Shown here piece by piece: positions 1,303 to 59,825 of a stretch of 64,000 nt of DNA. A program made the translations under genes and the position numbers. This DNA comes from Tribonema minus (Eukaryota; Sar; Xanthophyceae; Tribonematales; Tribonemataceae), in NCBI GenBank assembly GCA_017506865.1, contig JAFCMP010000170.1:57647-121646 (forward strand). The letters are read 5' to 3'. The first letter of the stretch is position 1. Every line of letters starts with the position of its first letter. Below the pieces are notes generated by a model, which worked only from the letters and a program-made list of their open reading frames with translations, made no database searches and was not told the origin of the DNA.

Positions 1303-4300
1303 ATGAAAAATCCGACCTCGAGAGTAGTCATGACTGATGATAGCATGGCCGTAGAAGTCGAGATAGGGGTGGCGATGCCACCTCCAGACCTTGTCAGCGT
1401 CGCCACGGGCGACAACTCGGCAGCCGCAGCAGCTGCAGCTTCAATGCAAGATTCCGCTATTGAGCTGGAAGCATTGCATAAGGCCGTCAAGGCCAATCCT
1501 CGCAGCTACGATGCGCACCTGACCCTGGTACAGACTCTCAGAACAGCTGGCGTAGAGCACAGGGAAGCCCTCAGGCAGGCAAGGGAGACATTCGCCAAGG
1601 CTTTCCCACTGAGTCCGGAACTCTGGGCGGATTGGATCGCAGACGAGAAGGCCGGGGGCGGCAATGCTGCGGATGTGAAGGCGTTGTACGAAAGGGCCTT
1701 CAAAGACTATCAGTGCGCCGCGCTGTGGCCTGGATACCTGGAGCTGCTGGACGAGATGAGCGACAACGAGGTAAGGGATGGTTGAAGTTCACGTTAATTG
1801 TGGTGGAGTGAGTTCGCCCTGATGTAGCAGTGTAAATTTGTCTTATCAGTACTGAGCCATGCTGGTCAGCAACGCTCTAGCACTATAGGTTCATCTTCGT
1901 CCGATCACAAAGGTGATGTTGTTGTGCCCATGCTGAAGCCCTGCAGGTCAGATCGGCGTGCCTGCTTAATTGCATCAATCAGCTCAAGAAAGTAGCACTG
2001 GCATTGCAACAATCCGGAGCCAAAAAGGCTGTGATGCTTCTTGCTCAATGAACCAGCTCGCTGACAACACTAGTTGGACAAGAATTTGTCGACAATCAGA
2101 CTGCCGTCAGTGCTGAGTTTCATGAGGAAGAGGCTGTGTGTATGAGACATGGCACAGTGCGCCTGCCACAAAGGAAGTAAGTTGTCTAGGTGACCGTGCT
2201 GGTCGTCTGAATATATGTGGCCACGACTACCTAAGCCTGCTGTATTGAAAGCTGCTACAGCCTGCGTTGCTTGTGCCTCGGAACTCATAGTAATCTTGGC
2301 GTCATAACCGCAACATGTCTACATACTGCTGAGAGGGGTACGGGGCAGATTGGTATGCAGTACCGTCATGTGCCTATTTAGGCCGACCGGGCCAACATTA
2401 GGCATCGTGAAATAAAGCACTCGGACACTGAATTAGGATCACGCGAAAAAAGCACCAGGCCTAATTACGACAGAGCCTCAGGAACACCCCACATGAGCAC
2501 ACATGACACATGTCCATGAGCGCGTCCTTCTGAAACAGTTTCGGCAAAAATTCAACTTCCAGGTTGTTTTTGCGAACTCGAGAAACGGTAGTGAACGGGG
2601 GGAAAGCCATCATTGTGCGGCTGCAAACAGACTGCACATCAATATCACGACACTTTTGAGCATGGAACTCGCCATCTGCTTGTCTGCTATGGCGTTCCGG
2701 TTCATTTATTTGACCGTGCGAGCACACAAATAGGGCCACGCAACCATTAGGTCAACACGGTGGATGTGCCACCAGGCCTAATTGAGAATGCCAGAAAAAA
2801 CACCTGGGCATAATTAGGATTGGTGCCCGGTACACGCCAATTGTTGGCCCGGTCAGCCTAAATAGGCACATGACGGTAAATGCTTACAAGGGTGTTCAGC
2901 AATCATCGAGTATAAGAACTGCTGTACTGTAGCGTTTCGTTGGTATTGTGACGGCAGGCTGTTGGTGCACATCACAGGAAGGCAGGGGGGCTGTTAATTC
3001 TGCGGTCACCAGCACTGGTTCTCGTCAGCGCCCGAATGTGAGCGCAGAGGGCATAGCTTATGCCGGCACATGGTGCGGCGCGAGGGCATACATTCAGTGT
3101 TTAGCTTGTCAAGTACTTGAACGGTGAAGTAGAACGACTGGGGCGGCAACACATATGTGTGCTTGGGACAATCTTTGCGTGCAGTGTGGCCGACAGGATG
3201 CACGCGCTGCAGTGCAACCCACACGGAGTTGAAGTGCGCTGTGTCTCAAGCGCACTTGAAGTGGAGCCTTCAGCGGGAGGCGAGCGCGGATAAGCTGCTC
3301 ACCGTTGAACCTAAATGATAACTTTAACTCTGATTCATTCTAACTGCATTAGCCCAGGTGCACTTGCTTGCTCATGTTCTGTGCAAGTTGCCCAATTTGG
3401 AGGCAGGCGCACATGGCAGTGCTTACGGGGGGGTTGCACGCACCCGCTATCCATGTGTTCGGTTGCCACATCATGTCTCTTTTCAAAAGCAGCCCAACAT
3501 GCAGAAGTATGACTACATTTGACATCAAGGTATCGATATCCCATCCTCCCGCATGGCAGGGGCTGTGCACAGCGAAGGTGCAATGCCCATCAGGGGTGAG
3601 AGGGGGGGGTTAGGGCGTCACCTGCCTGCTTCAAAACCGGTGTGATGGCAGTTCAAAATCCCAAACTGTAGTGATGCACTGACCACTTCTGCGTTCGTGA
3701 CGTTCAATTTTTAGAAGCGTATTACTTGTCACGTCAAACGCAGGATCTACTCTTTGTGACGTCTGTTATCGATAATGTCAACTGATCGTGCGAGACGCAG
3801 GATCTGGCTGCGATGGAGCAGGGACAGGCCCCCGAGGTGACGCTCACCGCTGTTGAACGATGGCAACTCGACGCCTCCAAGTGTAGCGATGCACTGACCA
3901 TTACTTTTGTCGTGTTGCACTGACCGCTACTGCGGTCGTGATGTTTCTCACGCTTACAATGCAGGAACTGTCTGAGACGGAGTTGAGACAAGCCCACGAG
4001 GCGGCGCTCACCGCGGTCGGCGTGCACCCCACAGTCGGGCCGCAGGTGTGGGCCGCATACCGCACGTTCGAGCAGGACGAGCTGCAGGATCTGGAGGTGG
4101 GTGGTGACGTGCCTGTGTGCATGAACTTCAAGAGTCAACTGCCGGAACTGGTGCGATCGGGCAGAGATTGCAGACACCAGCAGGCGTTGATCGGCGCGCG
4201 TGTGGCGGCGTACGGGGAGCCGATTGCTGCACTAGCCCTTCAATTAATTTGCGTCCACTTCAGATTGTTCCTCTGCTTGGGGCCAAGCAGACTGTTGCAC

Positions 4301-7300
4301 CCAAAAAGAGCCATCAGCAGCTGGTGCATGCGTCAGCAGCACTGCTGTCGCGGCAGCTGTTGGTTCCTCTCTCACGGCAGGTAACTGCGCTTTCACCAGT
4401 GCTCTTTGCCCCAAAATGGATCAGGCGCTGTAGTGGATCCTCACGGTTCACCGCGTAAACTGCGACACGTTTCTCTTACAAAGAAGTATCAATCAAAAGG
4501 TGATCGGTGGAAGGCATCCAATTTGGTGGCTAACTACACCTTGTCACGTAGAGCTCTACTTCGAAGTACGATCTTTTTATTTGTTTCCATCAATGTTGAT
4601 TCTCAGCCTCTGAAGCTGCCCTTTGCCTGCGGTGCAGGAAACCGGTGCATCGGAAGAGGAGCTAGCGGCTGCGCCTAGCGGCTGCGCGTGTGCGCATCAT
4701 GGCGCTGCTCTCGCAGTCGCAGTTGTGCATCCTCGCGGTTTGCCGCATAAACTGCAACACTTTTCTTTTACATAAATCAAAAATGTGTCTCAGCCTCTGC
4801 AACTGCCCTTTGTCCGCGGAGCAGGAAACCGGTGCATCGGAAGATGAGCTAGCGGCCGTGCGCACGCGCATCATGGCGCTGCTCTCACGGCAGCTGACGG
4901 TGCCCCTTCCCGGGAACGAGACCGTTCTTCAGCTGGCGGTGGCGCTGTCGCAGGACCTGGCGGCCGACGCTGCATCGGCGGAGAAAGAGGCCAAGCGTCT
5001 GCGCGAGGCGCATAGGAGGACGGAGGTGAGGGGCTGTGTACGCAGTGGTACTTGGTTGGCAGTACCTGGTAATGTGAGAACCACTTGCAGCAGCTGTGGA
5101 TTGCAGTTTCAGTGTCGGATGTGCTGCTGGAGCAGCAGTGTACGCTCTTATAGCCAGGTGCGTCCACGGCATGTGTGTGCAGGCTGATGCGTGGGCCACT
5201 TGCTTCATGCACGAATTTGCTTGTGCGCATTGTGCAGAACGTCTATGCCTGCTGGCCAGCGCATGCTTCCACGCTCTTCCACATACGACTCGCACACGAG
5301 TCAAATGTCGTCATACCCTGCTGCTCAATTTTTGGGGCAGCGCTTTGCATTCGCCACGCCATGTGAGTCAAATGTCGAAATACCCTGTTGCTTGATTTTT
5401 GGCGCAGCGCTTTGCATTCGCTACGCCATGTGTATTGTGTCTACAACTACATCGGGTGCAGCGTTGTTTGCTGAACCCCCCTGCCCTCTCTGCCTCCCCC
5501 CCCCCCACACACACACCATCATTCACAGGCACAGCTCCAGCCGCGGCTTGTTATGGAAGGCAAGGTGGCCGAAGCCGTCAAGGTGCGGACCCATAGAAGT
5601 ATCAACAATTGATTACTTTCAAATGCAATCCAATGCCTTGGATACACTGCCGTGTACAGGCTATTAGGGCACGAATGTTATTCATTACGGTTATTGGTGG
5701 AAGGCACTTGCGGCTAACCACTCCTTGTCACCTAGAGCTTCACGATCTTTTGAATCTTTTTCATTCATTAAAGTGAATCTGAACATGCGTGGACACAATG
5801 CAGCATCGCAAGCACAACGCAGCACGGCAGTGCGCAGTCTTCGTGTGCTCATGCACGTCGTGCGAAGAGCCGGCAGTGACGCAGTCCAATGACTGGTGCG
5901 GTGACTTGTACCCAAGGCGCTCATGCATACCGCATGACGCAGCATGTGCTCTTGCATACCAACCGTATGTTGCAGGCCGACGCATGTTTGACGCTCGTGC
6001 GCGCACACTACCCATGATGCTTATGCGCACGGTATGGCACATACCCGTGACATTCATGCATACCGTATGATGCTCATGCATACAGCATGACGCACCAAGT
6101 ACCCATGCAAACCGCATGGCGCATGCTGCATCGCGCTCACACATACGGTATGCATACCCGTGCATACTGTATGGCGCAGGCCGGCGTCGTGCCCCTGGCG
6201 CTCGCGCCCCGGCTTGCACTCATGCCACTCTCATGCAATGGCATGACGTTCATGCATGCCGCATGACGCACTAAGTATCCATGCGCACCGTATGGCGCAT
6301 ACCGCAGGATGCTCATGCATGCCGTATATCGCGCCGCACTCATGCATACACAACGCATGGACGCTGCCCTGCGACGCTTCCCTGGCGCTCGCGCGGTGGC
6401 GCGCACTGAAGCCAGTCATGCATACCGTATGATGCTCATCACATGACGCATATGAATACCGTATGACGCGCCGCATACCCATGCATGCCGTATGGGCGCA
6501 GGCCGGCGACGCGTCCCTAGCGCTCGCGCGCTGGCTCGAGTACTGCGAGTTCGAGCGCGCAGAGGAGCGCCAGCCCGCGCGTGCGCAGTTCCTGTACGAG
6601 CGCGCCCTCTCGGAGGGCGGCTGCTGCCTCTTCGACACTGCGTGGGAGCGGTACGCGGACCTTCTGCTGTGCGACCTCAAGGCAAAGGTGAGGTGTGCGC
6701 TCGTGTTGCGCGGCGTTTGTCCGCTGACACGCTGCGACGCTGCGGTGCATCGGCGCGCCTGCGCCGATTCCGCTCGTACTTCAGAATTTAGAGAAAGTAC
6801 CTCTGTAAGGTTTGACAACCTGTGCGACTTCACCAGTTCCGCTTGAACTTGAGACCGCCTGGGAGCGCTGCGCCGACCTGCTGCTGTGCGACCTCAAGGC
6901 CAAGGTGAGGTGTGGCAGCGCTCGCGCTGTGCTGCGTTCGCACGCAGTGGGGCGATGTGGTGCACACGTGCACCTTCGGCAATCCCGCTTGTACTTCCCA
7001 AAATCAGTAATGTATGCGTGTCATGTCTGGCACCGGTGCAGCTTCACCAATTTCGCTCATAAAGTACTTTTTATTAATTCTCGCTCAGGGCGCGAAAAAG
7101 CCCAGATGATTGGGTACTTCTTTGGCACATGACATGAAGCACTTCAGTAAGGTCGGACGCACACTTCATGTGCCGTGTCCCGGTCACCGCTGTGTGGTTG
7201 TCACTGCCTGTGAGCGTACTGTCGACGCGCTTTTGTGTCATCTCAACAGCAACTGCAGCTCAGCAGTGGAGTCGGATGTGACTTGTGACCTGTACTGTGG

Positions 7301-10300
7301 ACTGTACCATGGACTGTACTGTGGACTTGCCACTGTGGGCGCTGCGTCCTTGCCGGTTTCAGACATGCTTTCAACACGGCCCCCAAGTCAGAACTGTTTA
7401 TCGTTTCATGTCTGCCGACACTGCAGGCGCAGGAGCTGCAAGTGATGCGGCGTGCCGTGCGGAACGTCCCGTGGTAAGTTGAGCGCTGGTTCTCATTGAC
7501 ACACTTTTAAACTGACACATGATATGTAGATTCCGTACAGCAAGCTTAGATACCATTCATCTGGGCTTTGTTGCGCCCGAGCCAGGAAAAATCAAAACTA
7601 CACATTCCGAGGCCTGTTCCCCGTTTGGCAAGCACCAGCGCCAGTGCGGAAACGAAGGATGACGCACGCGGCGGCTGCCCGAAAGCGCTGCCAGATAGAG
7701 TCCAGTTTATCGGCGGTGTGGCCTAATTCACCCTCTGTCCTAAACGGTCACGGGCGGGGGGCTAGGCCGGCTACGCACATGCTGGTTGAAGTGTTCAACC
7801 AAGTAACATAAGCTACCATCCGCATATCATTGTTGGGTGCACGCGCTGCTTGCCATCATTGGTGCATGACAGCACTCGCAAGCATGATTCACTTCTTCAG
7901 GCATTCCTGCACAGAGTGCGTTTATAAAGTACAAGATTTCATCCCCCATGCAGTGCTTCCACATGTATTCCGCTAATGTCATCGGCCCATCTTCCCGTGT
8001 GCTGTACCTGTCTACTGGAATTGTACCTTACTGTACCGTACTTGTACCGCACTGTAACGTAACTGTATCACACTGTAACGGCAGGTCGTCATCGCTGTGG
8101 TGCCGCCTGCTGCGCTCGGAGGAGCGCTGTACCCCCGATGCGGAGGGCCGCGTCAGCGCGGTCCTTGCCGTTCTCGGGGAACAGGCGCTGCCGAGCACGT
8201 TCCCCACGCCCGAACAGGACCACTTGCGGTGAGCACTGCTGCTTTGTTTCCTGGCTCCATTCTACCAATAATTTGTGGTGCAGCTTGAGTTTTGACACCT
8301 GGCGTTTCTTACAACCTGGTGTTGAGTGCAAACGCCCCCCCCCCCCCCCCCCCCCTCCGCTCTTTGATGTGTTGTCCTTCTCAATCAAGTAGGGCTTCTT
8401 CTGGAACAAAGTTGTCGCGTCGCAAGTACGTGTCTGCATTGTGAAGTTTTTCGCAGCTGCGGCTTTCATCAAAGGCTGGTTACAGTGCTCATCTTCACAC
8501 ACACACCCCGCCCCTGTTGTCTCAACCTCCATCACAGGCTCCTCATGGCCGGCTGCGATGTGGCCAGGCGTGCCGTCGCCGCCGCCACCGCTTCTGCCGC
8601 TGACGTCAGGCCGCAGCACCCGTCTCAAATGACTAAAGACAAGGTGCTCACCTCACAACTTTCCATATGTTTCCGCAGTTTACTTGCACATGGGAGCATA
8701 ATGTTTCGCCCCCAGTGCAGACACCATCACATGACAAAACTGCTGCAGCGGTTGGCGCATGCTTTGTTGCGCACGGAACCTTTGTTTTCTTAAGCCCCCA
8801 ATGCAGGCATCACCAAATGACGAAAACTTTGCAGCGGTTGTTGCGTGCATTGCATTTCAGCAAATCGTGTCAGTTTCCTGCGTTGTGCGACGCAGCAACA
8901 CTGGAGTTGTCATGCATGCGGCGATGGTTATACCGTGCCCATGTGTTGCGTTTGCCTTTCCTCGAGATTTTACAGTGAGAAGCACATGTATTTACTCTGC
9001 TCAAACCAATAACCGTGTGCGGTGATACATACCTAGTCTGGCGCATCGTAAATGCAGGATTTGCTGCCTCACATCAGCCGTGCTCCCTTGTTGCCTTGCT
9101 GTGCAGGCAGCAACGCTCGTCAAGGATGCCGTGCAGCGCATGAGGGAGGTGAGGGTTGTTCCTGCCGCATGCACGGATTGTGCAGTTACATGGGACTGAC
9201 CGTGTTGTTCGGGAGGCAAGCCCGTCATCATTGAACGTGGGAGAAATTGTGTGGAAGTTGTGCCGTACTGCTGACACCGCCCAGGCTGCGCGCCCTACCA
9301 CAACGCGTCGAGTAGCAATTGCTGAGCGCTGCTGCCCTTGTGCGCGTCCGACCTTCCGGGTGCTGCTCCGCCGCCTGCAAGAAAAGATGCGCACGTGCTC
9401 TGCATTTTTCTCAGGCTTCTGTACACCCTCTGCAATTTGCTCTTTCTTCGACGAGGAATTGTCTAGCTATGTGCGCCATTTGCCCTTGAGGCGATCGGGT
9501 TTCTCATGTACCATTTTTTTTGTTCTTTTTTCAACACGCCCTCAACAGTAAGTTTTACTAAAGCGCTCACATCCAGCATCAGTTTCGCCTGCAGCAGCAT
9601 CAAGGGGCGGAGGGTGCAGCGTGCAGTGGTGCCGCCGCTGGATCGGTGCCACCTAGTGGAAGTGTGACTTGAAGATGCACCGGCTTTTCATCAACACGTC
9701 ACCTTGTTGCCTCTGTGCTGGAATCAGGCATTTTGTGGAGGCTGTGGTGGTACGGTGTGCATTGGCCCCACTTCAAGGCTGTGGTAGTATAGTGTACTTT
9801 GCCCGCAACTTATCTGCGCTGCTGTGCTGGAAGCAGGCGCTTGTGGAGGCGCTGGGCCCGTCTGCATTAGGGTTAGGGTTGCACCCTTATTTCAAACTGA
9901 CCCCAACCCTTGTCCTGCCCCTAAGCCGAGCACCGCGCACCACGCATTCGTAGATACACGTCTGCAAGCAGCCGACACATTCCTGCGTGCGCACGCCTTC
10001 ACCTCGCTACCTACAATTTTCACTTTGATGAATCTCATGCATACCGTGTGAATGCTGCCGTGCTGCGTGCACTTCAGGCCTTCATCGAAGCGCTGGGCTT
10101 CCTCGAACACCGCTACCCGCGCTGGGAGGAGGGCTGGCTCGCGCTGCTGGCCTACAAGGTCGAGACGGAGATGCAGCTGGTGAAACCGGTGAGAGACTCA
10201 TCGGGGGTACAAGCACACACACACCGAGTGCTACGAAATGTCAACGTTTCCTCTCTATGCGTGCAAAGTAATGGTGTCTGAAATCTTGTCTCTTCTGGTG

Positions 10301-23006: not shown

Positions 23007-25195
<2,189 letters not shown>

Positions 25196-44350: not shown

Positions 44351-44481
44351 CCTGCGCTGGCTACTGTTCAATTGGAATCATATGCTGCAAGTGCTCGTAC
44401 ATGAACCGTCGCGCGTGCGCAGGTGTCTGAATGAACAACCTCACATGTCTGAACTTCAACTTTCAGTTATGCTGCACGCAC

Positions 44482-47621: not shown

Positions 47622-47655
<34 letters not shown>

Positions 47656-48897
47656 CACACACACACACACACACAAACACACACTCACACACATACTTTT
47701 GAAGTATCAGCAGCCAGTTGTGGAACGCGGCGCATGTCGCGCGGTCAGCACGAGCGGTTTGCATCTTCAAATGTGATGTGCCAGTGGCCGCTGTCGCAAG
47801 GCCCCAGTCTGCGATACACGGCTCAAGTGCGCTGGGGGTAGGCGCAGGCTGAGGTTCAAGGTTACAGTTGCGTGAAAGACTAGTCTGACGCCATGTCGAT
47901 GCTGCGACTGCGCCGGACCGCGTCGCCATGAGCGCCGACACCCGCCCTACTTCACCTTGAAGTTCCTTTGAAGCAGCAGTGAGCCACGGCGGCCGTCTCC
48001 ACGTGCGCTCGACGTCTGCGCAGTATGCCCCCACAATTGGCGTCGCCTCGTGGAGCACCTGCATACAAAACCCTACCCAAACCCTAACCCTAACCCTAAG
48101 TACAGCTTCACCATGACCCCATCTGTACAAAACAGCTTCCAGCACCGGCCGTCACCTGACCCCCCGGCCCCTTCATCCTGACCGCATAGCGACACTCAGT
48201 CTACGCCCTTACCTTGTCCCCAAGATATTCTCCACAGTGATGTGTGCAGCACAGCACCGCACCCGACCCTGACCACATGCGCCCACCCCCGCCAACTCCT
48301 TCAGTACAACTTCAACCCTCTCCCGACTCCCCACGGCGCACGCGGTTCTTTGTGTGGAGCCTGACCCGCTCTTACCAGTCCCCGCCGCACATCTCGCCTT
48401 AACTCCAACCCTAACTTATCGTCTTCTCTCGCTCGGAGTCACCGACGCTCACCAGCACTTACTCCCTGACTCCGACTCCGACTCCGACCCGCACCTGCTA
48501 CTTGGTGATGAGCAAGGCCTCGCCATCAGCAAGCCGCATCACTGTCACTCACTCACTCTATGACTCTGACTCTGACCCGCACCTGCTCTTTGGTGTTGAG
48601 CAGCGCCTCGCCATCAGCAATGCTCACCACCACTTACTCACTCAGTCTGTCACTCACTCTATGATTCTGACTCTGACCGCACCTGCTGCTTCGTGTTGAG
48701 CAGCGCCTCGCCGATGGCCGTCTCCGCGTCGCTGGCGAAGCGCGCCGCCGCGTATTGCGACCCTGTGCTCGAACCCGCAGACGCATCCGCCATCCCCCCG
48801 CACACAGCGCTCAGATCGCGGCCCCCCCTCCCCCCCCCCAAACCCCCTACCGACCCCCGCTGCCCCCCCCCCAGCGACCTCCCCCCGCCCCCTCCCC

Positions 48898-48942
<45 letters not shown>

Positions 48943-51900
48943 TGCGGCAGTGTCGATCGCGCCGCTGCTGCTGTGATGGTGGTGATTATGGTGGTGAGAG
49001 GAGTGGTGGCGGTGCGGCCGAGTGCTGCCGCCGCCGCTGCTGCCGGCGCTCGCGACGCTGCTGCGGCTGTGGCGCTGCTCGGCGGTGGCGGTGGCGGTGG
49101 CGGCGGCGGCGGCGGCGGCGTGATCGTGCTCTGTCTGCGCTACCTCCGCGGGGGTGAGCTCCGAGAGGAGCAGGTCGGACCTGAGCTGGTGGCCGGAGTC
49201 GCTGGCTGAAGTTGAAGTTGCAGCGGGGGATGGGGACAGGACAGGGAGGCAGGGGGGGGGGGGGGGAGGGGGGAAATGCATGCAGAGTTGAGATTCGAGA
49301 TGCTGGCTGGCTATGGCCTTTCCGGAGGCATACGGGATTCATGACCTAGTACAGCCCTAGTACATCTGTGTTGGGTGTACTATCCAGCACGACTGTGGAC
49401 AGGGCATTTGCAGCTGAGACTTCCTGTACAACAGAGACTGAAACCATCGTCACATGACACAGTTATGCTTGCGTGCTCCACATAGCTAAGAGCAATATAC
49501 TGCTCAGCTGACCTGCGTGTACGGGGAAGCAGGGGGCAGGGGGATCCCCCCAAACAGTAGTTCCACCCGTAAACTAAACCCTAAATCCTGACCCTGGCTG
49601 TGACCCTAACATCCGCCCTCTCTGACAATTGTGTACGCATGCCTCGGTTTCCTGGCGCCGCGCCACCGGATCTTGGCCACACCGTAGTGCTACGCATGTG
49701 ACAAGCACCCCAATCTGTCTACTAGTATTGTGAAGCATCGCTAAGCTCCGTGCTGGCGCAATCGCTCTCACTCCAACTCCAAACCCCTCAACCCTAACCC
49801 TAGCCCTAACCCTAACCCTAACCCCTACCCTAACCCTAACCCTAAACCTGACCCGAAACCTAGCCCCACCGCCCTACCTGACTGCGATGCATTGCTCATC
49901 TCGATGCTATTGCGGCCCTCCGCGAGCACTGAGTTGTGGGAGAGTCGCAGCGGCGGCAGCGGACCCGTTCCGGTATGCCCTAGCCCTAGGGCTGTCGGAG
50001 CGCTGCCGTTCAGGTCCAGTCCGAGATCGGTGCTACTGCGGGCACCAGGAAATGCAGCGGCGGCGGCGGCAGCGGCGGCGGCAGCGGATCGCAGGTCAGG
50101 CAGCATGCAAGTTGAGAGTGGGCATGTATTGAAACCCATCCCAACAAATATTCGTCCTAACCCTAACCCTCACCCTAATGCTGACCCTACTGAGTGCTGC
50201 CGTTCGGGTCCAGCCCTAGGTCGGTGCCACTGCGGGCACCGGGAAAGGCGGCGGCGGCGGCGGCGGTTTGCATGTCAGGCAGCACGCAAATTGAGGGTGG
50301 GCATGTATTGAAACTCATGCCCACATGACCCCTAATCCTAACCCTAATCAGCCCAATGGCGACCCTTACATTGGCGCTAACCCTCACTTTAGTGCAAACC
50401 GTAAGTTCAGCGCTACTGAGAGCTGCCGAGTAGGTATGACAGTGCACAGCTCAGCTCAAGTTGAAGTTGGGTCCTGTTGGCACTGACGTGGCTGTTCATG
50501 TTTTGCCTCCTGGTTCTCAATCATCACTTCTAGCAACACAAGCACTAGCCGTGAGTCTTGTGTCTGCTTGGGTCCCTTGATTTGTTCATCGCTGGCACGA
50601 CGGTGAGCTATACGCTCTCAGGTCCCGACCCTAACCCTACTGCTAACACTAACTCGAACCCAACTGAGCGCTGCCGGCTAGGTCCCAACCCTAACCCTAG
50701 CGCTAACCCTAACTCTACCCCTACTGAGCGCTGCCGGCTAGGTCCAGCCCGACATCGGTGCGAGCGCCACAGGAGGGGGCTTCGGCGGCGGAGTGCAGGT
50801 CATACAGCGTGCGTACGGCAATCTTTTGATACGTTTCCACATTCAGGCAGAAGCGGGCCTCCGCACGCAGGCCTAACCCCCCCCCCTTGCCCCGAATGTG
50901 CAATAGCGTGGCGCTAACCCTACGCCGCACCCTCCTTGCGCGCGGCGACGGTCAGCGCGCGAGTTCTCACCTGGACCGGTGCAGCAGCCGCGCGTGCCGC
51001 CGCGCGAGCTCACCACGCCTTCCTTCGACTCTACACCGTGCTCATTAGACACAGCGATGGGCTTAATAAGCTCTCGCATCACGGCGTGTGGCAGCGGCGC
51101 GTGCCGCGGCATGAGCGATTGCGCTGAGGTCAATGGACACCACACGTTCAACACCGACAAGGAAGGCCCTCCCTTGCACCTCCGGAGGTAGGGGGCAAGG
51201 GACCCCTCGTGCATGTGGACGAAGAGATGTAAGTTGCGCTCAAAGATGAACACAACGCCTTCAACACCAACAACAACGCTCCTTAAGCGCATCGATGAGC
51301 AACGCGTGAGCTCTCACCTCGAGGGGTGCAGCAGCGGCGGGTGCCGCCGCGCGAGCGTCGCGCCGAGGTTGATGAACACCTCCACGGTGCGGCGCTGCTG
51401 CTGGCTCGCGTGCACTCGCTGCTGCGGCTTGCCGCTGCCGCCCGTTGAGTCCGGGCGCGCGCTGGTGGCAGCGTCGGGGTCGATGAAGCGCTCTGCGCAA
51501 GCGGCGGCGCACAGCGCTGCTGTCAGCGCTGAAAATATAAAAAGCGTGTTGATGGTGTGTTGTAGAAGTTTGTAGTGGTACTGCTGTGTTCAAGCATCGC
51601 CGTCGGTGAAGCGCTCTGCGCCGTAAGCGGCACGTACGGGGGCGCAGCGCACTGCTGTCAGCGTTGGGAGCTATATCATGGAACTGCTTGCACTGAATTG
51701 TATCTATTAATGAATGGATTCCGCTTGCCGCTGCCGCCCGGGGAGACCGGGCATGCGCTGGTGGCGGCGTCCGGGTCGATGAAGCGCTCTGCGCGCGCGG
51801 CGTGCGATGGCAGCGCAGAGCACTGCTGTCAGTGCTACAAACTTTTATCATGGTACCGCTACAGATCATTTTACCGGAATTTTCGTGGTAGTGGTGGTAG

Positions 51901-54900
51901 GCATCTGGGTGGATGAAGCGCTCTACGACGCGTGCGGGGGCGCACAGCGCTGCTGTCGGCGCTGGGGACACGATTATAGTACTGCTGGTATGTTATAGAA
52001 GTAGTGGTGTTTTTTGTAGCTAGGAACGTGCATGTGGTACCGCTAGCACTAGATGGTATCTACAGTAGTGGTGGTGATGCTGTATTCAGGCGTCGGGATC
52101 AATGAAGCGCTCTGCGCGCGCGGCGTGAAATGGCAGCGCCGAGTCTTGCTGTCAGCGCTGGAAACATGATCATGGCACATACCGCTAGCACATGATGGTG
52201 GTCTATGATAGTTGCGATGGCACTCAGGCGTCAGGGTCGATGTAGCGTTGTGCGCAAGCGGCGTGCGCGGGGGCAGATGACGCCGCTGCCAATGTGGGGA
52301 CATGATCATGGTACCGCTAGCACTTGATTAAAAATACTACTTCTGAAGTATGCAATTACTTTGCACCAGTAATTGTCAAAGCAAGCTGCTATCAACATAT
52401 GCTTTTCGAAGCCTATTTGCGATGAAAAAAGTTATGATAGTAACTTTGGCAAACCTTACACAAGTCAAAGCCATTTGTAACTGGCAGCACCGCTCAGCTC
52501 ACCCCATATCTCCCTGGCGTGTGCCCTGCGCGACGGCACGTCGCGGCCGTCGTGCAGCCGCTTGTACTTTTGCACCTGCCGGAGATGAGGAGCGGTGACA
52601 CAGTTTTTGAAGTTAGAGATAGGGTTCTGCTCTAAGTTATCAAGGATCAGGGCTAAATGAACGATCTCCTTGTAGGTTGCACCTGCCGAAGATGAGCAGC
52701 GACACAGTGGTTGAAGTTATGTTAATGGGTCCTATTTCAAGTGCATCAAGAATGGGGGTTCTTCAGGCTGACTCAGCGGTGGCACAGTCTCCGTGATGAA
52801 CTCAGTGCAAAACGCAACCAGCTGCATCAATGGCATGTTGAGATGGGCACGGTTAGGGTTAGGGTAGGTATCACGGCGAAGCACAACCTCAGTGGATGCT
52901 GATCTCAGGCGGTTGTCGCAGTGACGAGAGCGCGGCTGCTCGTCCTACCCCTACCCTAACCCTAACCCTATATCTGGCTGTGAAAACAGAGCACACGCCA
53001 GGCTAGCAAAATGTGCCAGGCAGCATACATACTCTATGCTTGGTCCCTCGCTCAGCGCTCGCATGCACACTGGGGGGCTGCTTCTAAAACAATGGACGAA
53101 CAGAGGCGCTGGGTCGCGCGACTGTCGTCTATCTCGCATGCCTGCCACACTGGCGCTTGAGCCAAACTAGTACTTCAAGTGCGTACATGAAGTACCTTGA
53201 GTTCTCGTGCAGCAGGCCCGTGCCACACTCATCTCGCGCACACATACAAGCGCATATTCATTAGATGCAGTGCAGTCCGCCGTGTATGCTCGTATACGTG
53301 CGTGCACCTCATTGTAGCAGTCCACGACGACCTTGCCGCGGCCGCGTCAGTAGTCGCGCAGCAGGTCCATGCCACACTCATTCTGCACATACATCAAAGC
53401 CTGCGTACGAAGTAGATAATACTTCGAGGTGTCCTCGCATACATGTATGTACATGCATACCTCATCGTAGAAGTCCATGACGACCTTGCCGCGGCCGTGG
53501 CAGCAGTCGCGCAGCAGGTCCATGCCGTACTCAATTGCGTACATACATGAATGCATCAAAGCGCACGTACGTTTGACATAATTGAACGTTCAAAGGCGCC
53601 TGCACCTCGTCGTAGAAGTCCATGACGATCTTGCCGCGGCCGTGGCAGTAGTCGCGCAGCAGGTCCATGCCGTACTCCTCACGGCCGTCGCGTATGATGT
53701 CCCACAGGTCGTTCATGTGCTGCTTGCGGAACTGGCGCACGCGGTGGTCGCGCAGCATGCGCGCACGCGTATCCGCCCCGGTCACCTGTTTGTTAGTTGA
53801 GGTCGCGGTTAGGGTTACGGTTAGGGTTGGGGCTAGGGTGAGGGCCAGGATTACTCTGATTGGAAGGTTCATGCAGCATGCGCGCACGCGTGGCGCCTGT
53901 CACCTGTCATTGATAAGGGTTGAAGTTCGTGTTGGGGTGAGGGTAAGGGTTGGGGTCAGGATCAGGCAAGGGTTACTCTAACACTACGGTGCGGTGCTGT
54001 TTGCGGAAGTGGCGCGTGCGGTGGCCGCGCCGGTCACCTGTCGTTAATCAGGGTTGCATTTAGGATTACGGTTAGGGTTAGGGCTAGGGTTACTCTAAAA
54101 CACGAGTTCATGTCAGTTATGGATGCCTCCTCAGAAGTAGGGGTGGAGTTGGAAGTAGGGCTAGTGTCGTTGTTGGGTCAGGGTTACTACAACACTAATG
54201 GTGCTGGGTCAGGGTCAGCGCTGGTAACGACGTTGACGGGCGTGCGAATGTCGGCGACAGCGCTCCGCGGTGTGGCGCGTCATCAACCGAGGGGCGGGTG
54301 TTGACGAATAATGACGGCTGGGGTGCCCCTTATCCTACCTACCCCTTATATCAGATGCGGCCGTGCCGCGCGCGCGTGCGCGTCCGCCGCGTCGCTCACC
54401 GTTCGGCAAGGCGCATATGCTGAGCAGACGTTGCGGCTGAAAGTCAAGGTCTACACCTCAGCAGCACTGCTCATCAGATGCATGTCTACCCATGGCAGCG
54501 CTCACACGACGAGGCTGTCTCACGAGCACATGGGTTCCCGTCCCCAGCGGTCAGGTCTTTGGCAGCAGCACATGGGTCAAAACCTGGGGGTCCAGAGTGA
54601 GTGAGGGTTGGGGTTGCACCGCCCAGCATCGTTTCATCATCGTCACAAGTGCAAGTTTAGCGGCGGTTCACCGCAGTCACGCGCCCACCCCAAACCCGCC
54701 ATCCAGAGCAAAATTATATGAATAAATCGCACGTTCTGCGCAAGCTCGGGGGGCTAGGATTAGGGTTAGAGTAAGGGCCGTGGCATCGCTCAGCATTGTG
54801 CAGCAACGCACTCACCATGTCGATGTCCGTCTTGGGCAGCACGTACAGCAGCAGGTCGTCGCGCGCGCGCACGGACGCGTAGGCGGGGGATCCCGTCAGC

Positions 54901-57900
54901 ACCTGCGCGCGTAGAGAAGTTGAAGTCGAGGTCACGTTAAAACAGACTGTCATGATGCGCGCGTGTGGCAGCGTTTAAAGGCCACAGAGATGCGCGCCCG
55001 CGTGTGTAGAGGCGCAACAATGAGGCAAGTCAGCTTCAAGTAGTCGTTGTCGCGCGCGCGCACGGGCGCGTCAGCACCTGCGCGGCGGCAGGGTTATCAA
55101 TAATTCCAAGTTTGAGGAGGCGGGGGAGGTCACGCAGCGCGAGTGGTAGTGGCTGCAGGCGACGGGGACGCGTGCCCGCGTGTGTTGAGGTGCTGATGAA
55201 TCTCAAACTTGACTGATGATTGTCGCGCGCGCGCATATGCGGGCGACCCCGTCAGCACCTGTGCGTGCAGAGAAGTTCGATTCAAGGTGACTTCAACAAG
55301 CTGTCACGGCGCGTGCATGTGGCAGTGATTGCAGGCCACTGGGACGCGCGCCCGTGCGTGTTGAGGCGCAGTGCTGATGAATCTCAAACTTGACTCATCA
55401 TTGGCGCGCGCGCGCACGGACGCGTACGCAGGAAACCCAGTCAGCACCTGCGTATGCAGAGACGGGTTCACGTAAGAGGATAGTTTTAACAAACTACCGC
55501 AGTGACGGCGCGTGGAAGCGCGCCACGGTAGCGCGTGCCCGCATGTGTCTTTGAAAGCTCGCATAATCAACCTTGCACACGAACGTTGCGTTGTGAAAAC
55601 AAGAATACGTTCAAGGCGCTGGTGGGCACCATCAAGGGGAAGTTGGCTCGTACGGTGAACACCATAAAGGGGAGTTTTGTTTTTAAGAAAAAAGGGGAGT
55701 TTTGTCTGTCAAAAAAGGGGAGTTTTGTCTGTAAACATCATTTCTTTTCAAAGCACCGACGGGCAATTTGATTCGTGAACATCATTCCCGTTCAAAAACT
55801 CACTGACAAACTCCATCAAAGCAGTCCATTGGAATGGTAACTTTTTACTCGCGAGCGGGCTCTTGTCAATCCTATGGCGGCTTGAGCTCCGAGATGTCAA
55901 CCTCCTTGTGGCATAAACCCACCAAACTTTCTCTGAAATACTCCGACTTGGATATCATGCATACATGAAGTTTGATCCCAGCACAGCCTCGCCGTGTTCT
56001 CTCCAAAGTATTCTGGCTGCTTGAGCTCCGTGATGTTGCTGTAATGACATCAAAATCTAGCAGAACGATCTGAGATGGTCTTGTACTTCAAAGTATACAT
56101 ACATATACATATATGCCTCACCGTGCCCTCGCCAAAGTACTCTGGCGGCTTCGTGATGCGTGATGTCGACCTCCATGTGGCATAAAGCCATGAAGGTCTA
56201 CTTGTACATCATAATGAAAATGTCTTTTATAAATACGTACATATATTTTTAATATACATATACGCCTCACCGTGCCCTCGCCAAAGTATTCTGGCGGCTT
56301 GAGCTCCGTGATGTCGACCTCCATGGTGCCGCCGCCGTCGGGCACCTGCACAAAGATGCTCACCGTCGCCGCGCCCGAGACCATCATGAAGATGGCGGGG
56401 TTGGCGCTGCGTGTGCCCTCCTGCGAGAGTCGTACAGTGAGTCAGTGAGTAAGTGAGTCCGTGAGTGAGGATTGAGCGAGTGATGAGTTAGTACATGATT
56501 ATTGAGCGTCGCTACGCCCAGGAATATCGTGAAGGTGGCGGGGTGGCACAGCGTGTGCCTCCCTGCGCGGGGAAAGCCACGTAATTCACCAGGTGAGTGA
56601 GTGAGTGGAGTACACGCGTATGGAGCATCGCCCCACGTGAAGATGGCGAAATTGGCGCTGCGCGAGCTCCTAATTGGGAGGAATCAAGTGAGTCAGTGAG
56701 TAAGTGGGTAAGTGATCCAGTGAGTACGCAAATTTCTAGCTGCCGTACAGCGCAAAGCGCCGTGGCAGGTGTGTGCCATCGTGATCGCCGCCGCCGCAAC
56801 TGCAGAAGACAGCACCAATGCGTGGTGGTGAACGGATGACTCACATCGTGAAGTTGGTGCGCCCATGCACAGCCCGCACGTATTTCATTGGAGTATGTAA
56901 GTAAATGCGACTCGTGCGTCTGCGGCCGCGCGATCGCCAAAACCGTCCAGGCATAAATGCAATACATGTACTCCAACATGGGCCACGTGCTCGCGTGCGC
57001 ACGCCGAGATGTGACGGCGCGCCAGTGATGGCACCGCTGCGCCGGCAATCGGGCATAGGCAGCCTCACTCGTGCACGCAGCGCGCAGCGCCCGGCGTTAC
57101 ACAGGTCAACCGCCATTGCGTCAGGACATGGCGTCAGGACAGGCGGGGTCGCGCACACTTCAACATCCGGCGCTTCAACATCGGGCATGCGCGGCACGGC
57201 GCTGCACTAGCGTACGTCAAAGACTCCGCATTCGTCGCCAATCGCGCAGCTCTGCCACGCTGCGGGCGGCCGTGTGGCATGCTGCGCAATGGTGGCGCGT
57301 GCGTGACAGCAGTGCTCGGAAGCTGCTGCTGCGCGCGCCACTGAACACGCTTCAAGACACTTGAACATCGGCAGACGCGCCGCGCGGCGCTGCATTGATG
57401 TACGTCACTGACTCCGCCCCCTCCCCCTCCACCCCTCTCAGAGCTCCCCCATGGAAGGGCGGCGCAACGCTTTTCGCAGCCCGGCATGCGCGATTGACAG
57501 AACAGCGGCGCTCGGCAGCATGCGCAGCAGTCAGAAGCAGTTGGCACCAACGCTGAACAACATGTGCCCCAAACGGCGCTGCCGCCGCGCAGAAGCGAAT
57601 CGGAAGCAACGCTCAACAACGTGTGTCCGCGGACGGCGCAGCCGCCGCACCGAGGCAAAACAGAAGCGGCACTCAAATGACTTGCGCGAACGGCGCCACC
57701 GCCGCGCAGAAGCAAATCTGGAGCGGTGCTCAACAGCAAATCGTCGGCAGTGTCAGCGACTTGCCCGGATGATGTTGTCGCCGCGCAGAAGCAAAATGGA
57801 AGGAGCAGTGCTCGGATGATGTGATGTTTTCGTCGTGGACAGGGCAATGATCAGAAGCAGCGCTCAACAACGTGCCCGGATGATGCTGTCGCCGCGCAGA

Positions 57901-59571
57901 AGCAGTGATACGAAACAGCGCGCAGCGACTTGCCCGAATGATGTTGTCGCCGCGCGCGACGGTGAGCGAGCGCATGCGCTTGGCCAGCTCCTTGCGCTCG
58001 TCCTCCTTGGCCTCCGCAAACAGCGGGACCTTCTCCAGCTGCGCCAGCGCCGCGGGCCACTGAGCGCTGCGTTGCGAGACAGGATGAACGGTCGCACACA
58101 AGGGCAGGGTCAGGGGGGTTGCAGTTTGGGCCGGAGCTGGCTATATGTGTGGGTCAGGGGGGCACTTGCGGCTCAGGACTGCTGAACCAATGCTTTACAA
58201 TAATATGTTGCGCATATGTCACCGTGAGCGCCGCGGGCCATTGAGCGCTGTTGCGAAAGGGGGGGATGACAGTTGTAATCACCATGGGGGTTAGTGCTAC
58301 GGTTTGGGCTAGCATTGGCTAGGTCTCTGGACCATGGGGCAGACGCGCGGCTCAGGACAGCTGAACCGATACCTTATGTACAACCGCGTGACAAGTAACA
58401 GGTGGCGTGCGTACGTTGTCGTGCGCCAGCGCCGCGGGCCACTGAGCACTGCGTTGCAAAAGGGGGAGGGGGGAGGGGGCCCGTCGCGGTCGGGGTGAGG
58501 GGAGTTGCGGTTTGGGCCAGAGCTGACCACTTGTTAGGGCTGCGCGTGGGGCTTGCGGCTCGGGACTACTGCACCGATACTCGACAACTCAGCGCCAGCA
58601 CAGGTTGCGCGTACATTGTCGCGAGCTGCGCATCAGGTGGTGTAAGCAGCAGGTGCACGCAGCGTGCCTCGTAGTGGCGCCGCCCTGCTGAAAACAGCTG
58701 ACAGCCATTCTGAAAAAAAAGGAAGAAAAACGTCCGCCACAGCATCGCTCAACGCCGCTCCTCCAGTCATCCAGCTGCTGCCGTCACCTCAGCAGTTGAG
58801 TTGCGTGATTGACGGATCGGTTTCGAACCGCTTAACACATGCACAAGGCAGCACGACCTCTTGCTGGTGCTGTACAAGCGGTCCGCAGCGCTGCACGGAC
58901 ACGCATCGAGTACGCCGCGCTGCGCGCACAGCAGCAGCGGCAGCAGCGCCGCCAACAGCATCGCCACGTCTCGGCTGCCCCGGCTCATCGAAGCAGGCCA
59001 GCCAGCAACGCTGCGCTGCACCCGCATGGCGCGCAGCAAGAAGGCGCGCGGCGCTCGCTCACGGCGGCAGTGGCGTCGACAGCGGCACCATGTCCTGGCT
59101 CTGCGTCATGGCAACGCGCTGCAGCGACCGCGCAGCTTACGACGAACAGCGAGAGCGTAACGAGCAGCCAGCCAAGCCCGCGCGGCACGCGACATGGACT
59201 CACGGCGGCAGCGGCGTCGACAGCGGCACCATGTCCTTGCTTCCACGGCTCACGAATACTGAAACTCAAGCAACTCAAACCGCAACGCAAGCAATCAGCG
59301 GCGACCACGCGCGCGCCGCAGCAGACGCGCAGCAAGCAAACATGCGACATTGACTCACGGCGGCAGCGGCGTCGACAGCGGCACCATGTCCTTGCTGGCC
59401 TGGCTCTGCGTCGTGGCGATCTGCACCACGGCGCCGAGGCTGCCCGCGGCCACCTTCTTGGTCTCCGTCACTGCGCCGTGCTGGTCGCCGCTGGTCAGGC
59501 GCCGCAGCCCCGAGCGCTTGCTGTCGCCGCGCATCAGCAGCTTGAGGGAGAACGCCGACGTGCGCTGGGCG
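44482..59571 (-). CDS. Cyclic-nucleotide-binding-like and RGS-like domain protein (multi-exon, partial model)
   Basis: Supported exons: 59571-59359, 58059-57934, 56420-56271, 54902-54816, 53785-53606, 52575-52503, 51492-51318, 48762-48683, 48058-47951, 47523-47461, 46636-46580, 45262-45131, 44676-44482. The second to seventh join in phase, as do the last six. Unresolved are the 59.4-58.1 kb junction and the 51.3-48.8 kb stretch, where exon-like pieces lie near 50.87-50.73, 49.96-49.88 and 49.21-48.9 kb. Exons 2-4 form a cyclic-nucleotide-binding fold (LEKVPLFAEAKEDERKELAK; FMMVSGAATVSIFV; YFGEGT-VLTGSPAYASV). Then come RGS-like helices (MDFYDEVQKYKRL; AREIWERFIDPDA; CIFDEIISQ; DVIPQFIDSSFFDRYLAIK) and a basic Ser/Arg-rich tail. 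RGS domains accelerate G-alpha GTP hydrolysis. Both true ends are unknown. Confidence 0.7.
44829..44890 (-). repeat. Copy of the acceptor and 5' end of exon 44676-44482
   Basis: Minus-strand CAGGTGCAGGACGGCGCCTC to GCGCGGCGCCGGCTGAGCG matches the real exon start (CAGGCGCAGGACGGCGCGTC), about 210 bp upstream. Confidence 0.85.
44925..45020 (-). repeat. Copy of the 3' end and donor of exon 45262-45131
   Basis: Minus-strand GCGAGCGACAATGTGCGCGG and the preceding CACCG/TGGCTC(A/G)GGG segment repeat the real exon end (GCGAGCGACAATGTGCGTGG), about 190 bp downstream. Confidence 0.85.
45266..45291. repeat. G-run (C-run on the coding strand) before an acceptor
   Basis: About 25 consecutive G on the plus strand read as the pyrimidine tract directly before the CGCAG acceptor of exon 45262-45131. 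Similar C-tracts precede the acceptors of exons 33084 and 59571. The plus strand could form G-quadruplexes. Confidence 0.85.
47518..47700. repeat. Degenerate TTAGGG array followed by a CA microsatellite
   Basis: GGGTAAGGGTTAGGGTGAGG-type units (about 47540-47595) are followed by CA dinucleotides (about 47626-47690) in one intron of the CNBD/RGS gene. Confidence 0.85.
48450..48720 (-). repeat. Two copies of the 3' end and donor of exon 48762-48683
   Basis: The real end (minus-strand GGCGAGGCGCTGCTCAACAC then the AGCAGGTGCGG donor) is repeated at about 48620-48578 and 48525-48483 with GACTCTGACTCTGACCC-type spacers, period about 97 bp. All keep the CAGGTGCGG donor. Confidence 0.88.
49785..49852 (-). 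repeat. CCCTAA telomere-type array
   Basis: About ten CCCTAA units with single-base variants form the longest of many interstitial arrays between 47.5 and 61.3 kb. Others are near 48077, 50157, 50330, 50625, 50687, 52850, 52945, 53805, 54065, 54757, 60930 and 61053. Orientation varies between arrays. Confidence 0.9.
50016..50290 (-). repeat. Two copies of an exon-like segment whose likely original is near 50.75-50.80 kb
   Basis: Segments at about 50016-50110 and 50196-50290 read on the minus strand as poly-Ala, then FPGARS(S/G)TDLGLD(L/P)NGS. They resemble the piece at 50810-50739 (GARTDVGLDLAGSA). Each ends near a CAGTAGGG-like or related donor. Confidence 0.65.
51580..52262 (-). repeat. 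Five copies of the acceptor and 5' end of exon 51492-51318
   Basis: Minus-strand CGCAGAGCGCTTCATCGACC followed by CGGACGCC recurs at about 51612-51585, 51795-51760, 51928-51900, 52118-52085 and 52258-52228. Spacers contain ATCATGGTACCGCTAGCAC-like text and a CAGCGCTG(A/C)CAGCAG block. Confidence 0.9.
53195..53540 (-). repeat. Three copies of the 3' end and donor of exon 53785-53606
   Basis: GGCATGGACCTGCTGCGCGA to ATGGACTTCTACGACGAGGT (minus strand) is repeated at about 53535-53455 and 53385-53303, with a short remnant at 53235-53200. The nearest copy is almost identical. CATACATGAATGCAT-type text is duplicated with it. Acceptor-side remnants also occur near 53880-53910 and 54010-54045. Confidence 0.92.
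55046..55460 (-). repeat. Three copies of the acceptor and 5' end of exon 54902-54816
   Basis: Minus-strand CAGGTGCTGAC(G/T)GG and GCGTCCGTGCGCGCGCGCGA recur at about 55080-55046, 55263-55217 and 55452-55405, with spacing of about 185 bp. Spacers share GATGAATCTCAAACTTGACT and a GGGCGCGCGT(C/G)CC block. Confidence 0.9.
55865..56185 (-). repeat. Three copies of the 3' end and donor of exon 56420-56271
   Basis: Minus-strand ATGGAGGTCGACATCACGGA to TTTGGCGAGGGCACGGTGAG is repeated at about 56180-56122, 56035-55985 and 55905-55865 with increasing divergence. The first two keep the GGTGAG donor. Confidence 0.92.
56513..56685 (-). repeat. Two diverged copies of the acceptor and 5' end of exon 56420-56271
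   Basis: Minus-strand text with AG(C/G)GCACACGC, CCAA/CCC and GCCATCTTCA(C/T) recurs near 56575-56518 and 56675-56635. GTGAGTGAGTGAGT-like spacer text on the plus strand is shared. Confidence 0.6.
57752..57912 (-). repeat. Copies of the 3' end and GC donor of exon 58059-57934
   Basis: Minus-strand GGCGACAACATCATCCGGGC then AAGTCGCTG at about 57787-57756, and versions near 57840-57815 and 57903-57870, repeat the real end with its GCAAGT donor (57960-57928). The rare GC donor is copied intact in at least one. Confidence 0.88.
58225..58465 (-). repeat. Two copies of the acceptor and 5' end of exon 58059-57934
   Basis: Minus-strand GCTCA(G/A)TGGCCCGCGGCGCT at about 58250-58229 and 58450-58425 repeats the real acceptor and start at 58068-58045. 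A GACAACGTACGC-type donor-like string lies beside the second. Confidence 0.85.
59035..59240 (-). repeat. Two copies of the 3' end and donor of exon 59571-59359
   Basis: Minus-strand GACATGGTGCCGCTGTCGAC then GCC(A/G)CTGCCGCCGTGAG recurs at about 59095-59055 and 59235-59198. The donor is intact in both. Confidence 0.9.
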
Positions 59572-59649
59572 CTGTTGCGGGGGGGGGGGGGAGATACGGC
59601 AGGGGGGAGGGGGGAGGGGGGGAGGGGGGGAGGGGGCGCTTTGTTGTGA

Positions 59650-59825
59650 ACAGTCGGCGTGGCTTGAGGGAGAATGCCGACGTATGCTGAGCGCTGTCGC
59701 ATTGCGTTGAGAGGGAGGGGGGGGCGGGGTGTCAGGGCGCTTTGTTGTGAACATTCGGCGCAGCGCAGGCGGCAGCTTGGGGGAGAACGCCGACGTGCGC
59801 TGAGCGCTGTTGCGTTTGGGGGGCA
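59650..59825 (-). repeat. Two copies of the acceptor and 5' end of exon 59571-59359
   Basis: Minus-strand CAACAGCGCTCAGCGCACGT then CGGCGTTCTCCC at about 59815-59775, and a weaker version near 59700-59665, repeat the real start at 59575-59538. Poly-G/C tracts accompany each. Confidence 0.85.

What the first reader, a model, noticed from the sequence alone, without database searches (positions are those of the whole stretch)
3819..59825. Introns contain tandem copies of the adjoining exon ends with their splice sites
In all three multi-exon genes, nearly every exon has one to five imperfect tandem copies of its 3' end plus donor in the downstream intron, or of its acceptor plus 5' end in the upstream intron. 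Clear cases are 6845-6910, 10373-10440, 15014-15345, 17811-17866, 20995-21890, 30868-31262, 34388-34870, 37208-37318, 48450-48720, 51580-52262, 53195-53540, 55046-55460, 55865-56185 and 57752-57912. Units run about 95-245 bp and always span an exon-intron border, while the complete exon itself is not duplicated. I know of no described genome feature with this systematic pattern. It may show intron growth by local duplication, supply decoy splice sites, or reflect a repair or retro-copy process acting at junctions.
Basis: seen in the sequence. Interest (0 to 1): 0.88.

Follow-up and report, generated by a model that had tools for sequence, protein, structure and literature searches.

The report
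Exon-edge duplicates piled up inside introns
In an alga's genome, short stretches straddling the edges of exons have been copied again and again into the neighbouring introns, leaving many strong-looking but apparently ignored splice signals, which offers a natural test of how cells choose the right splice site and how introns grow.

Summary
All 14 cited intervals hold local direct repeats of a neighbouring exon edge. "Nearly every exon" is too strong: 25 of 43 window exons, and 58 of 176 borders in ten genes, have copies. In genes chosen without regard to repeats, 20 of 72 donors and 12 of 72 acceptors match their own intron, against about 0.1% of non-own introns.

Copies are direct (165 pairs, 2 inverted). 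Most carry the intron part too (57 of 79). None holds a whole exon (0 of 106). They drift like untranslated DNA.

Best reading: recurrent local tandem-type duplication of roughly 140-bp segments across exon borders. The copies left in the intron are neutral half-exons that splicing seems to ignore. Border-spanning arrays (53 of 72) exceed a simulated null of random duplication, selection and decay (22.7 of 72), so exon edges look like duplication hotspots. The cause is unknown. Retro-copying, intron birth by exon duplication, introners and alternative exons were tested and do not fit. No RNA data or second eukaryote genome was available.

The parts
1101..22997 (+). SART3/Prp24-type gene (spliced alignment runs from 655 to 22997); 10 of 21 exons of at least 20 nt have copies
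3797..3853 (+). copy of acceptor + start of exon 3983-4096
4692..4712 (+). short copy of the intron end just before exon 4894-5025 (does not reach the exon)
6152..6403 (+). two copies (6152-6214, 6338-6403) of acceptor + start of exon 6502-6687; the second has TG for AG
6851..6938 (+). copy of 3' end + donor of exon 6502-6687
10374..10438 (+). copy of 3' end + donor of exon 10078-10188 (94%), 179-bp spacer
13600..13714 (+). tandem copy of donor region of exon 13421-13494, 6-bp overlap TACAGT at the junction
15135..15373 (+). two further copies of donor region of exon 14902-15016 (about 5 nt of exon included)
16823..16991 (+). two weak matches to the edges of exons 15794-15878 and 17025-17420, low complexity, doubtful
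17804..17862 (+). copy of acceptor + start of exon 17996-18242
20999..21885 (+). four copies (20999-21054, 21147-21198, 21712-21765, 21835-21885) of 3' end + donor of exon 20542-20707
28204..28230 (-). short copy of donor region of sulfotransferase exon 28386-28505
30864..31263 (-). three copies of 3' end + donor of sulfotransferase exon 31346-31463
32702..32803 (-). copy of 3' end + donor of exon 32944-33084 (TT in place of GT)
34383..34827 (-). three copies of 3' end + donor of exon 34894-35127
37228..37318 (-). copy of 3' end + donor of Asp/Asn hydroxylase-like exon 37377-37922 (95%)
44832..44889 (-). copy of acceptor + start of exon 44482-44676
44937..45015 (-). copy of 3' end + donor of exon 45131-45262
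48474..48612 (-). two copies of 3' end + donor of exon 48683-48941
49024..49078 (-). weak matches to the acceptor of exon 48683-48941 and to exon 51318-51492, low complexity, doubtful
50953..51141 (-). two copies of 3' end + donor of exon 51318-51492 (one GT, one GC)
51593..52268 (-). five copies of acceptor + 5' end of exon 51318-51492 (four keep AG)
52677..52708 (-). short copy of acceptor of exon 52503-52575
53300..53532 (-). two copies of 3' end + donor of exon 53606-53785
53873..54030 (-). two copies of the 5' end of exon 53606-53785 (one reaches the acceptor)
55046..55452 (-). three copies of the 5' end of exon 54816-54902 (two reach the acceptor and keep AG)
55875..56177 (-). three copies of the 3' end of exon 56271-56420 (two reach the donor: one GT, one GC)
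56507..56701 (-). two copies of acceptor + 5' end of exon 56271-56420 (one AG, one AT)
57754..57897 (-). two copies of 3' end + donor of exon 57930-58066
58227..58457 (-). two copies (58227-58256, 58422-58457) of acceptor + 5' end of exon 57930-58066
59058..59241 (-). two copies of 3' end + donor of exon 59359-59702

Best explanation
In this alga, short genomic segments (mostly about 60-250 bp, typically about 140 bp) that straddle an exon-intron border are repeatedly duplicated in place, in direct orientation. The exon and its outer splice site stay in use. The extra copy, holding half an exon with one splice site plus some intron, is left inside the intron and drifts as neutral DNA, lengthening it. 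Splicing appears to ignore such half-exons, probably because each has only one splice site and so is not defined as an exon, and because the true donor is transcribed before its copies. Direct orientation, lack of coding constraint and border excess are shown here. That splicing ignores the copies is inferred from gene models, not from RNA. The duplication chemistry (slippage, template switching or microhomology end-joining) and the reason why borders are hotspots are inferred or unknown.
For: Elsewhere in the genome: five HSP70 genes and one CarB-type gene, picked for their exon hits before their repeats were looked at. Border excess: 53 of 72 arrays against 23.2 by random placement, 39.9 if border copies were three times easier to detect, and 22.7 by a simulation of random duplication, removal of exon-disrupting events, neutral decay and the same detection, P about 3e-13. 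It holds for single-pair arrays (26 of 42, my count from the rows; P=5e-5) and for the seven homology-defined genes (34 of 49, P=6e-8). Intron-only and intergenic arrays have similar background densities, 1.8 and 2.2 per 10 kb (predicted genes). Direct: 165 pairs vs 2 inverted; borders 53 vs 1 of 176. Genomic template: intron part alike in 57 of 79 copies. No coding constraint: mismatches by codon position 0.077/0.063/0.151 in the CarB-type and HSP70 genes, as expected if the copy drifts everywhere and the exon only at third positions; 45 of 58 indels not a multiple of three; splice dinucleotide kept in 78 of 89 copies. Gain: paralogue L015 has two exon-start copies closer to its own exon (91.8%, 90.0%) than to that of L014 (88.8%, 84.4%); L014 has none. 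Overlaps of 6 bp in two and fillers of 3-8 bp in three of 14 junctions inspected.
Against: In 22 of 79 tested copies the intron part is not detectably alike; six of these are among the 27 copies whose exon part is at least 93% identical. About two thirds of 107 neighbouring pairs have spacers above 10 bp. So plain tandem duplication needs extra deletions or template jumps. No mechanism explains the border excess. Splice dinucleotides are kept more often (0.88) than other dinucleotides in the exonic parts (0.79); I put this down to change on the exon side, but it could hint at retention. The SART3 gene lacks the third-position excess (0.149, 0.155, 0.121). Some genes lack copies (L047, 0 of 10 borders; the fetched parts of L035/L049 show no self-repeats). 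The pattern is weaker in loci annotated only by my predictor (12 and 7 of 88 introns). P values assume independent arrays, and the simulation assumes an exon rate of 0.3 and shuffled introns.
Confidence: 0.6

Rival explanations
1. Unbiased local tandem duplication everywhere. Border-spanning events merely stand out because exon sequence is conserved and wholly exonic events are purged.
For: Intergenic and intron-only arrays exist at similar density. Conserved exons do slow the loss of detectable similarity (57% vs 45% detected). Border periods are longer than background (median 137 vs 93.5 intron-only and 120 intergenic), as length-biased spanning would give.
Against: The simulation that includes these effects predicts 32% border arrays; 74% observed. 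A threefold detection advantage still gives P=0.0003.
Confidence: 0.22
2. Copies are retained because they do something: alternative exons, back-up splice sites or regulatory decoys.
For: 33 of 51 GT-bearing donor copies score at or above the lower quartile of real donors. GT/AG kept in 78 of 89, more often than other dinucleotides of the exonic parts (2783 of 3540).
Against: Codon-position and indel patterns show no coding constraint, and dinucleotide retention is close to the 0.86 that I work out for a neutral copy with about 7% change. All 51 would cause a frameshift or stop if used, by the gene models.
Confidence: 0.06
3. Introns arose by tandem duplication of exonic AGGT segments (Rogers-type gain), leaving exon copies inside the new introns.
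For: Acceptors are mostly followed by GT, as expected for AG|GT proto-splice sites.
Against: The donor region should match the acceptor region at a distance of one intron; in 0 of 51 arrays (best pair of each) do both copies cover a border. Most copies carry intron sequence of the same border.
Confidence: 0.03
4. Break repair by copying nearby DNA into intron breaks (SDSA or repair-mediated duplication), with exon edges as preferred templates.
For: Spacers between exon and copy, fillers and abrupt ends resemble the vertebrate repair-mediated duplications of PMC2671141 (passages).
Against: Only 2 of 167 local pairs are inverted, and about a third of neighbouring pairs are head-to-tail or nearly so. 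That paper lists 4 partial exon/intron donors against 278 intronic ones, so border preference is not its hallmark.
Confidence: 0.2

Closest known systems
Repair-mediated duplications of proximal DNA in vertebrates (Pace et al. 2009, PMC2671141; abstract, outline and passages seen)
   Same: Short closely linked duplications; microhomology, filler or deletion at breakpoints; may copy splice sites; no coding constraint found on the two copied exons tested there.
   Different: There 278 donors are intronic and only 4 partial exon/intron, and an inverted case is described. Here 53 of 72 arrays span a splice border and copies are almost only direct.
Intron gain by tandem genomic duplication (PMC4974935, listing and start of abstract seen; Rogers model recalled)
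   Same: Local tandem duplication involving splice signals.
   Different: That creates a new intron from exon sequence; here existing introns receive border-spanning copies and no donor-acceptor match is seen.
Introner elements (PMC9860276, start of abstract and one passage seen)
   Same: Mass remodelling of introns in diverse eukaryotes.
   Different: Introners are the same element in many genes; here copies match their own neighbouring exon.
Tandem exon duplication with alternative splicing (recalled, no call)
   Same: Exon sequence repeated in the same gene.
   Different: Never a complete exon (0 of 106), no coding constraint.

Membership tests
Repair-mediated duplication (Pace 2009) | duplicate within about 5 kb of its source | tested here: met
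   103 of 108 window pairs within 3 kb
Repair-mediated duplication (Pace 2009) | microhomology, filler or deletion at breakpoints | tested here: inconclusive
   14 junctions inspected; overlaps of 6 bp in two and fillers of 3-8 bp in three, no control
Repair-mediated duplication (Pace 2009) | copies in either orientation | tested here: not met
   165 direct, 2 inverted
Tandem duplication | direct orientation | tested here: met
   165 of 167 local pairs
Tandem duplication | head-to-tail, without spacer | tested here: inconclusive
   gap of at most 10 bp in 33% of 107 neighbouring pairs
Rogers-type intron gain | donor region copied at the acceptor of the same intron | tested here: not met
   0 of 51 arrays, best pair of each
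Introner | same intron sequence in many unrelated genes | tested here: not met
   176 introns; 27 cross-gene pairs share a piece at E<1e-6, the longest 235 bp; pieces were not compared one by one with whole-intron length
Introner | terminal inverted repeats or short target site duplications | not tested
   -
Alternative or duplicated exon | complete exon with both splice sites and coding constraint | tested here: not met
   0 of 106 whole exons; no coding constraint
Alternative or duplicated exon | use in transcripts | not testable with these tools
   no RNA data

The most novel reading that the evidence does not exclude
Exon-intron borders of this alga are themselves hotspots of a direct, roughly 140-bp duplication process tied to splice junctions (74 of 350 splice borders have copies against 5 of 58 coding starts or stops, and donors more often than acceptors, predicted genes). 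It would be a so far undescribed junction-linked mutational process that drives intron growth and floods introns with strong splice sites that the spliceosome must ignore.
Probability: 0.35. Interest if true: 0.85.

Novelty: new variant of a known kind. Interest (0 to 1): 0.64.

Why it matters
If the border excess holds genome-wide, it points to a mutational process focused on splice junctions, and to a direct route by which introns grow from the exons beside them. It also supplies a natural experiment: strong donor sites with their own exonic context, tens to hundreds of bases from the true one, whose use would break the protein yet which show no sign of having been purged. This makes the question of how real splice sites are told from near-identical decoys (exon definition, order of transcription, intron motifs) directly testable. 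It also warns that gene finders and splice-site predictors may call false exons in such genomes; my own predictor did so at 6854-6904, 34732-34773 and 34396-34434.

Tried and rejected
Rejected: mRNA-derived or retro copies (intron part included in 57 of 79); orientation-free capture; Rogers-type gain; introners; coding or alternative exons; mere detection bias. Assembly artefact is unlikely for most copies, since their exonic parts differ from the exon by up to about 24%, but some short ones are identical. Of two near-identical contig pairs, one has equal numbers of local repeat pairs (L017 and L018, 3 each), the other 7 and 3 over partly different stretches (L028, L029).

Considered: a recombination motif. 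TTGAAGT is enriched near donors but not clearly linked to copies (10 of 19 introns with the motif have donor copies, 25 of 69 without). A diverged homologue as repair template: the contig pairs differ by under 0.1%, so not supported. A nucleosome-sized unit: border periods cluster at 110-180 bp (52% vs 22% of background), but longer units also span borders more often, so no claim. Donor over acceptor bias: 35 vs 23 of 88 borders, p=0.08; 47 vs 27 of 175 in predicted genes, p=0.013. The splice-border versus coding-end contrast (p=0.03) rests on predicted starts and stops, at least one of which (CarB-type gene) is a misread splice border.

Organism: a cryptophyte phycoerythrin family gave no match, without a positive control; one LHC protein resembles fucoxanthin chlorophyll proteins; the species is unknown.

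One SART3 exon end (20752) was moved to 20707 after the predictor. Exons under 20 nt were dropped; contigs L018 and L029 were left out as near-duplicates; predicted 'copy exons' resembling a neighbouring exon were removed (by hand for the minus-strand window genes, by rule; not). Reading frames of the minus-strand window genes are approximate, and that of the hydroxylase gene is wrong. L001-L012, L034 and L041 were not used in the counts.


Full report
WHAT IS THERE. The window is G000:C170:57647-121646 of a 158-Mb eukaryotic assembly. The genome has many light-harvesting protein matches split into exons, and the one tested is closest to fucoxanthin chlorophyll proteins in the PDB, so I take it for a photosynthetic alga of the red-plastid kind; the species was not identified. 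Within the window I modelled a SART3-like gene on the plus strand and, on the minus strand, a cyclic-nucleotide-binding/RGS gene, a sulfotransferase-like gene (Pfam match below its curated cut-off) and an Asp/Asn hydroxylase-like gene; an FNIP-repeat reading frame lies beside them. Self-BLAST gave 108 direct repeat pairs, 103 within 3 kb.

NOT ONLY THIS WINDOW. To avoid choosing genes by their repeats, I took five HSP70 genes and one CarB-type gene (of two loci) from the same genome. I defined their exons with a protein-to-DNA spliced aligner written here, using E. coli DnaK and CarB. With the SART3 gene this gave 72 introns. Probes of 60 exonic plus 20 intronic bases matched the interior of their own intron in 20 of 72 donor and 12 of 72 acceptor cases, against 0.08% and 0.12% of non-own introns. 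In 88 introns of 27 genes predicted in 18 other loci, the counts were 12 and 7 of 88, against 7 and 4 of 2,187 probe-intron pairs from other genes.

BORDERS ARE FAVOURED. In ten genes (88 introns; seven genes by protein alignment, three by the predictor) I found 72 arrays of local direct repeats: 53 include a splice border, 17 are intron-only, 2 exonic. Rigid random placement predicts 23.2. A simulation with random tandem duplication, removal of exon-disrupting events, neutral decay and the same BLAST detection predicts 31.6%, or 22.7 of 72. Single-pair arrays alone give 26 of 42 (counted from the rows), and the seven homology-defined genes 34 of 49 (tests). In predicted genes of the window and 18 loci, background arrays are about equally dense in intergenic DNA and in intron interiors (2.2 and 1.8 per 10 kb; 18 and 23 of 92 arrays, with 46 at borders and 5 touching coding sequence). 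Predicted coding starts and stops show fewer copies (5 of 58) than splice borders (74 of 350), p=0.03.

ANATOMY. There are 106 copies at 58 of 176 borders: 35 donor and 23 acceptor. The estimated unit has a median of 144 bp (donor side) and 142 bp (acceptor side), with 54 and 37 bp of exon; the exon share is lower than uniform. No copy covers a whole exon (0 of 106). Copies are direct: 165 pairs against 2 inverted. In 57 of 79 testable copies the intron part is also alike, so the template was genomic DNA. In 22 of 79 it is not, in six of these beside an exon part at least 93% identical; they need later deletion or a jump of template, and I do not explain them. Of 14 junctions inspected, two show a 6-bp overlap and three a filler of 3-8 bp.

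AGE AND FATE. In the CarB-type and HSP70 genes mismatches at codon positions 1, 2 and 3 are 0.077, 0.063 and 0.151. This is what a neutrally drifting copy facing an exon that changes mainly at third positions would give. The SART3 gene does not show the third-position excess (0.149, 0.155, 0.121). 45 of 58 indels break the frame. Splice dinucleotides survive in 78 of 89 copies (0.88). A neutral copy with about 7% change would keep 0.86; other dinucleotides of the exonic parts are kept in 2,783 of 3,540 (0.79), which also counts changes on the exon side. So there is no sign of purging and at most a weak hint of retention. Yet 33 of 51 GT-bearing donor copies score at or above the lower quartile of real donors, and by the gene models all 51 would damage the protein if used. 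The models place the used donor first and the used acceptor last; this is inferred from protein alignment and prediction, not from RNA.

TURNOVER. Paralogous light-harvesting genes L014 and L015 share an exon at 90% over 768 bp. L015 has two upstream copies of acceptor plus exon start, closer to its own exon than to the exon of L014; L014 has none. Intron lengths are 2,040 and 624 bp. So these copies were probably gained after the genes split. The fetched parts of the HSP70 pair L035/L049 have no copies and L047 none at 10 borders, so genes differ.

MECHANISM. Shown: local, direct, genomic, border-biased, without coding constraint. Inferred: slippage or template switching or microhomology end-joining; half-exons ignored because they carry a single splice site (exon definition, recalled knowledge) and because true donors are transcribed before their copies while acceptor copies come first, which would also fit fewer acceptor copies. 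Unexplained: why borders are favoured.

KNOWN OR NEW. The nearest published process that I found is repair-mediated duplication in vertebrates (PMC2671141; abstract, outline and passages seen). It duplicates splice sites now and then, but its donors are mainly intronic (278, against 4 partial exon/intron). Intron gain by tandem duplication and introners fail the defining tests made here. Searches for the pattern itself (two of them empty) listed no paper that by its title and abstract start describes it. I looked into four papers by passages (PMC2671141, PMC9860276, PMC11347835, PMC12730881), and the library lacks most subscription journals. I rate it a new variant of a known kind, with a possible new junction-linked mutational process behind it.

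Noticed in passing
introns of the ten modelled genes (88 introns): The 7-mer TTGAAGT is strongly over-represented in introns (TTGAAGTT 45 seen, 1 expected; TTGAAGT 87 sense, 47 antisense), denser in the first 50 nt after the donor, and not seen in the last 50 nt before the acceptor: perhaps a donor-proximal intronic splicing motif. The donor-proximal excess is not seen in the 88 introns of predicted genes alone.
   Followed up: partly
21271-21665: A roughly 390-bp dispersed element with 45 other matched stretches listed in the genome, many partial, in tandem on contigs C479 and C187; a 180-bp part is the most frequent; nature unknown.
   Followed up: partly
49785-49866, 48068-48099, 60926-60969: Telomere-like CCCTAA/GGGTTA arrays, the first two in introns of the cNMP/RGS gene, the third outside the modelled genes; AGGGTTAG is also enriched in introns.
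   Followed up: no
exon starts: Exons mostly begin with GT after the acceptor CAG (G 0.76, T 0.57 over 25 introns), so both intron ends read AG|GT, and most introns are phase 0, as expected if introns entered AGGT sites.
   Followed up: no
24462-24677 and 47613-47693: Long CA/AC dinucleotide arrays.
   Followed up: no
L017/L018 and L028/L029: Contig pairs about 99.95% identical over 8.5-9.7 kb (small contigs against large ones): haplotigs or assembly duplicates; L028 also holds a 100% local duplication at 1289-2154.
   Followed up: partly
39082-40617 (-): A long open reading frame with FNIP repeats (Pfam PF05725, E=7e-21) without local repeats in it; it looks intronless, but my predictor joined it to the genes downstream.
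   Followed up: no
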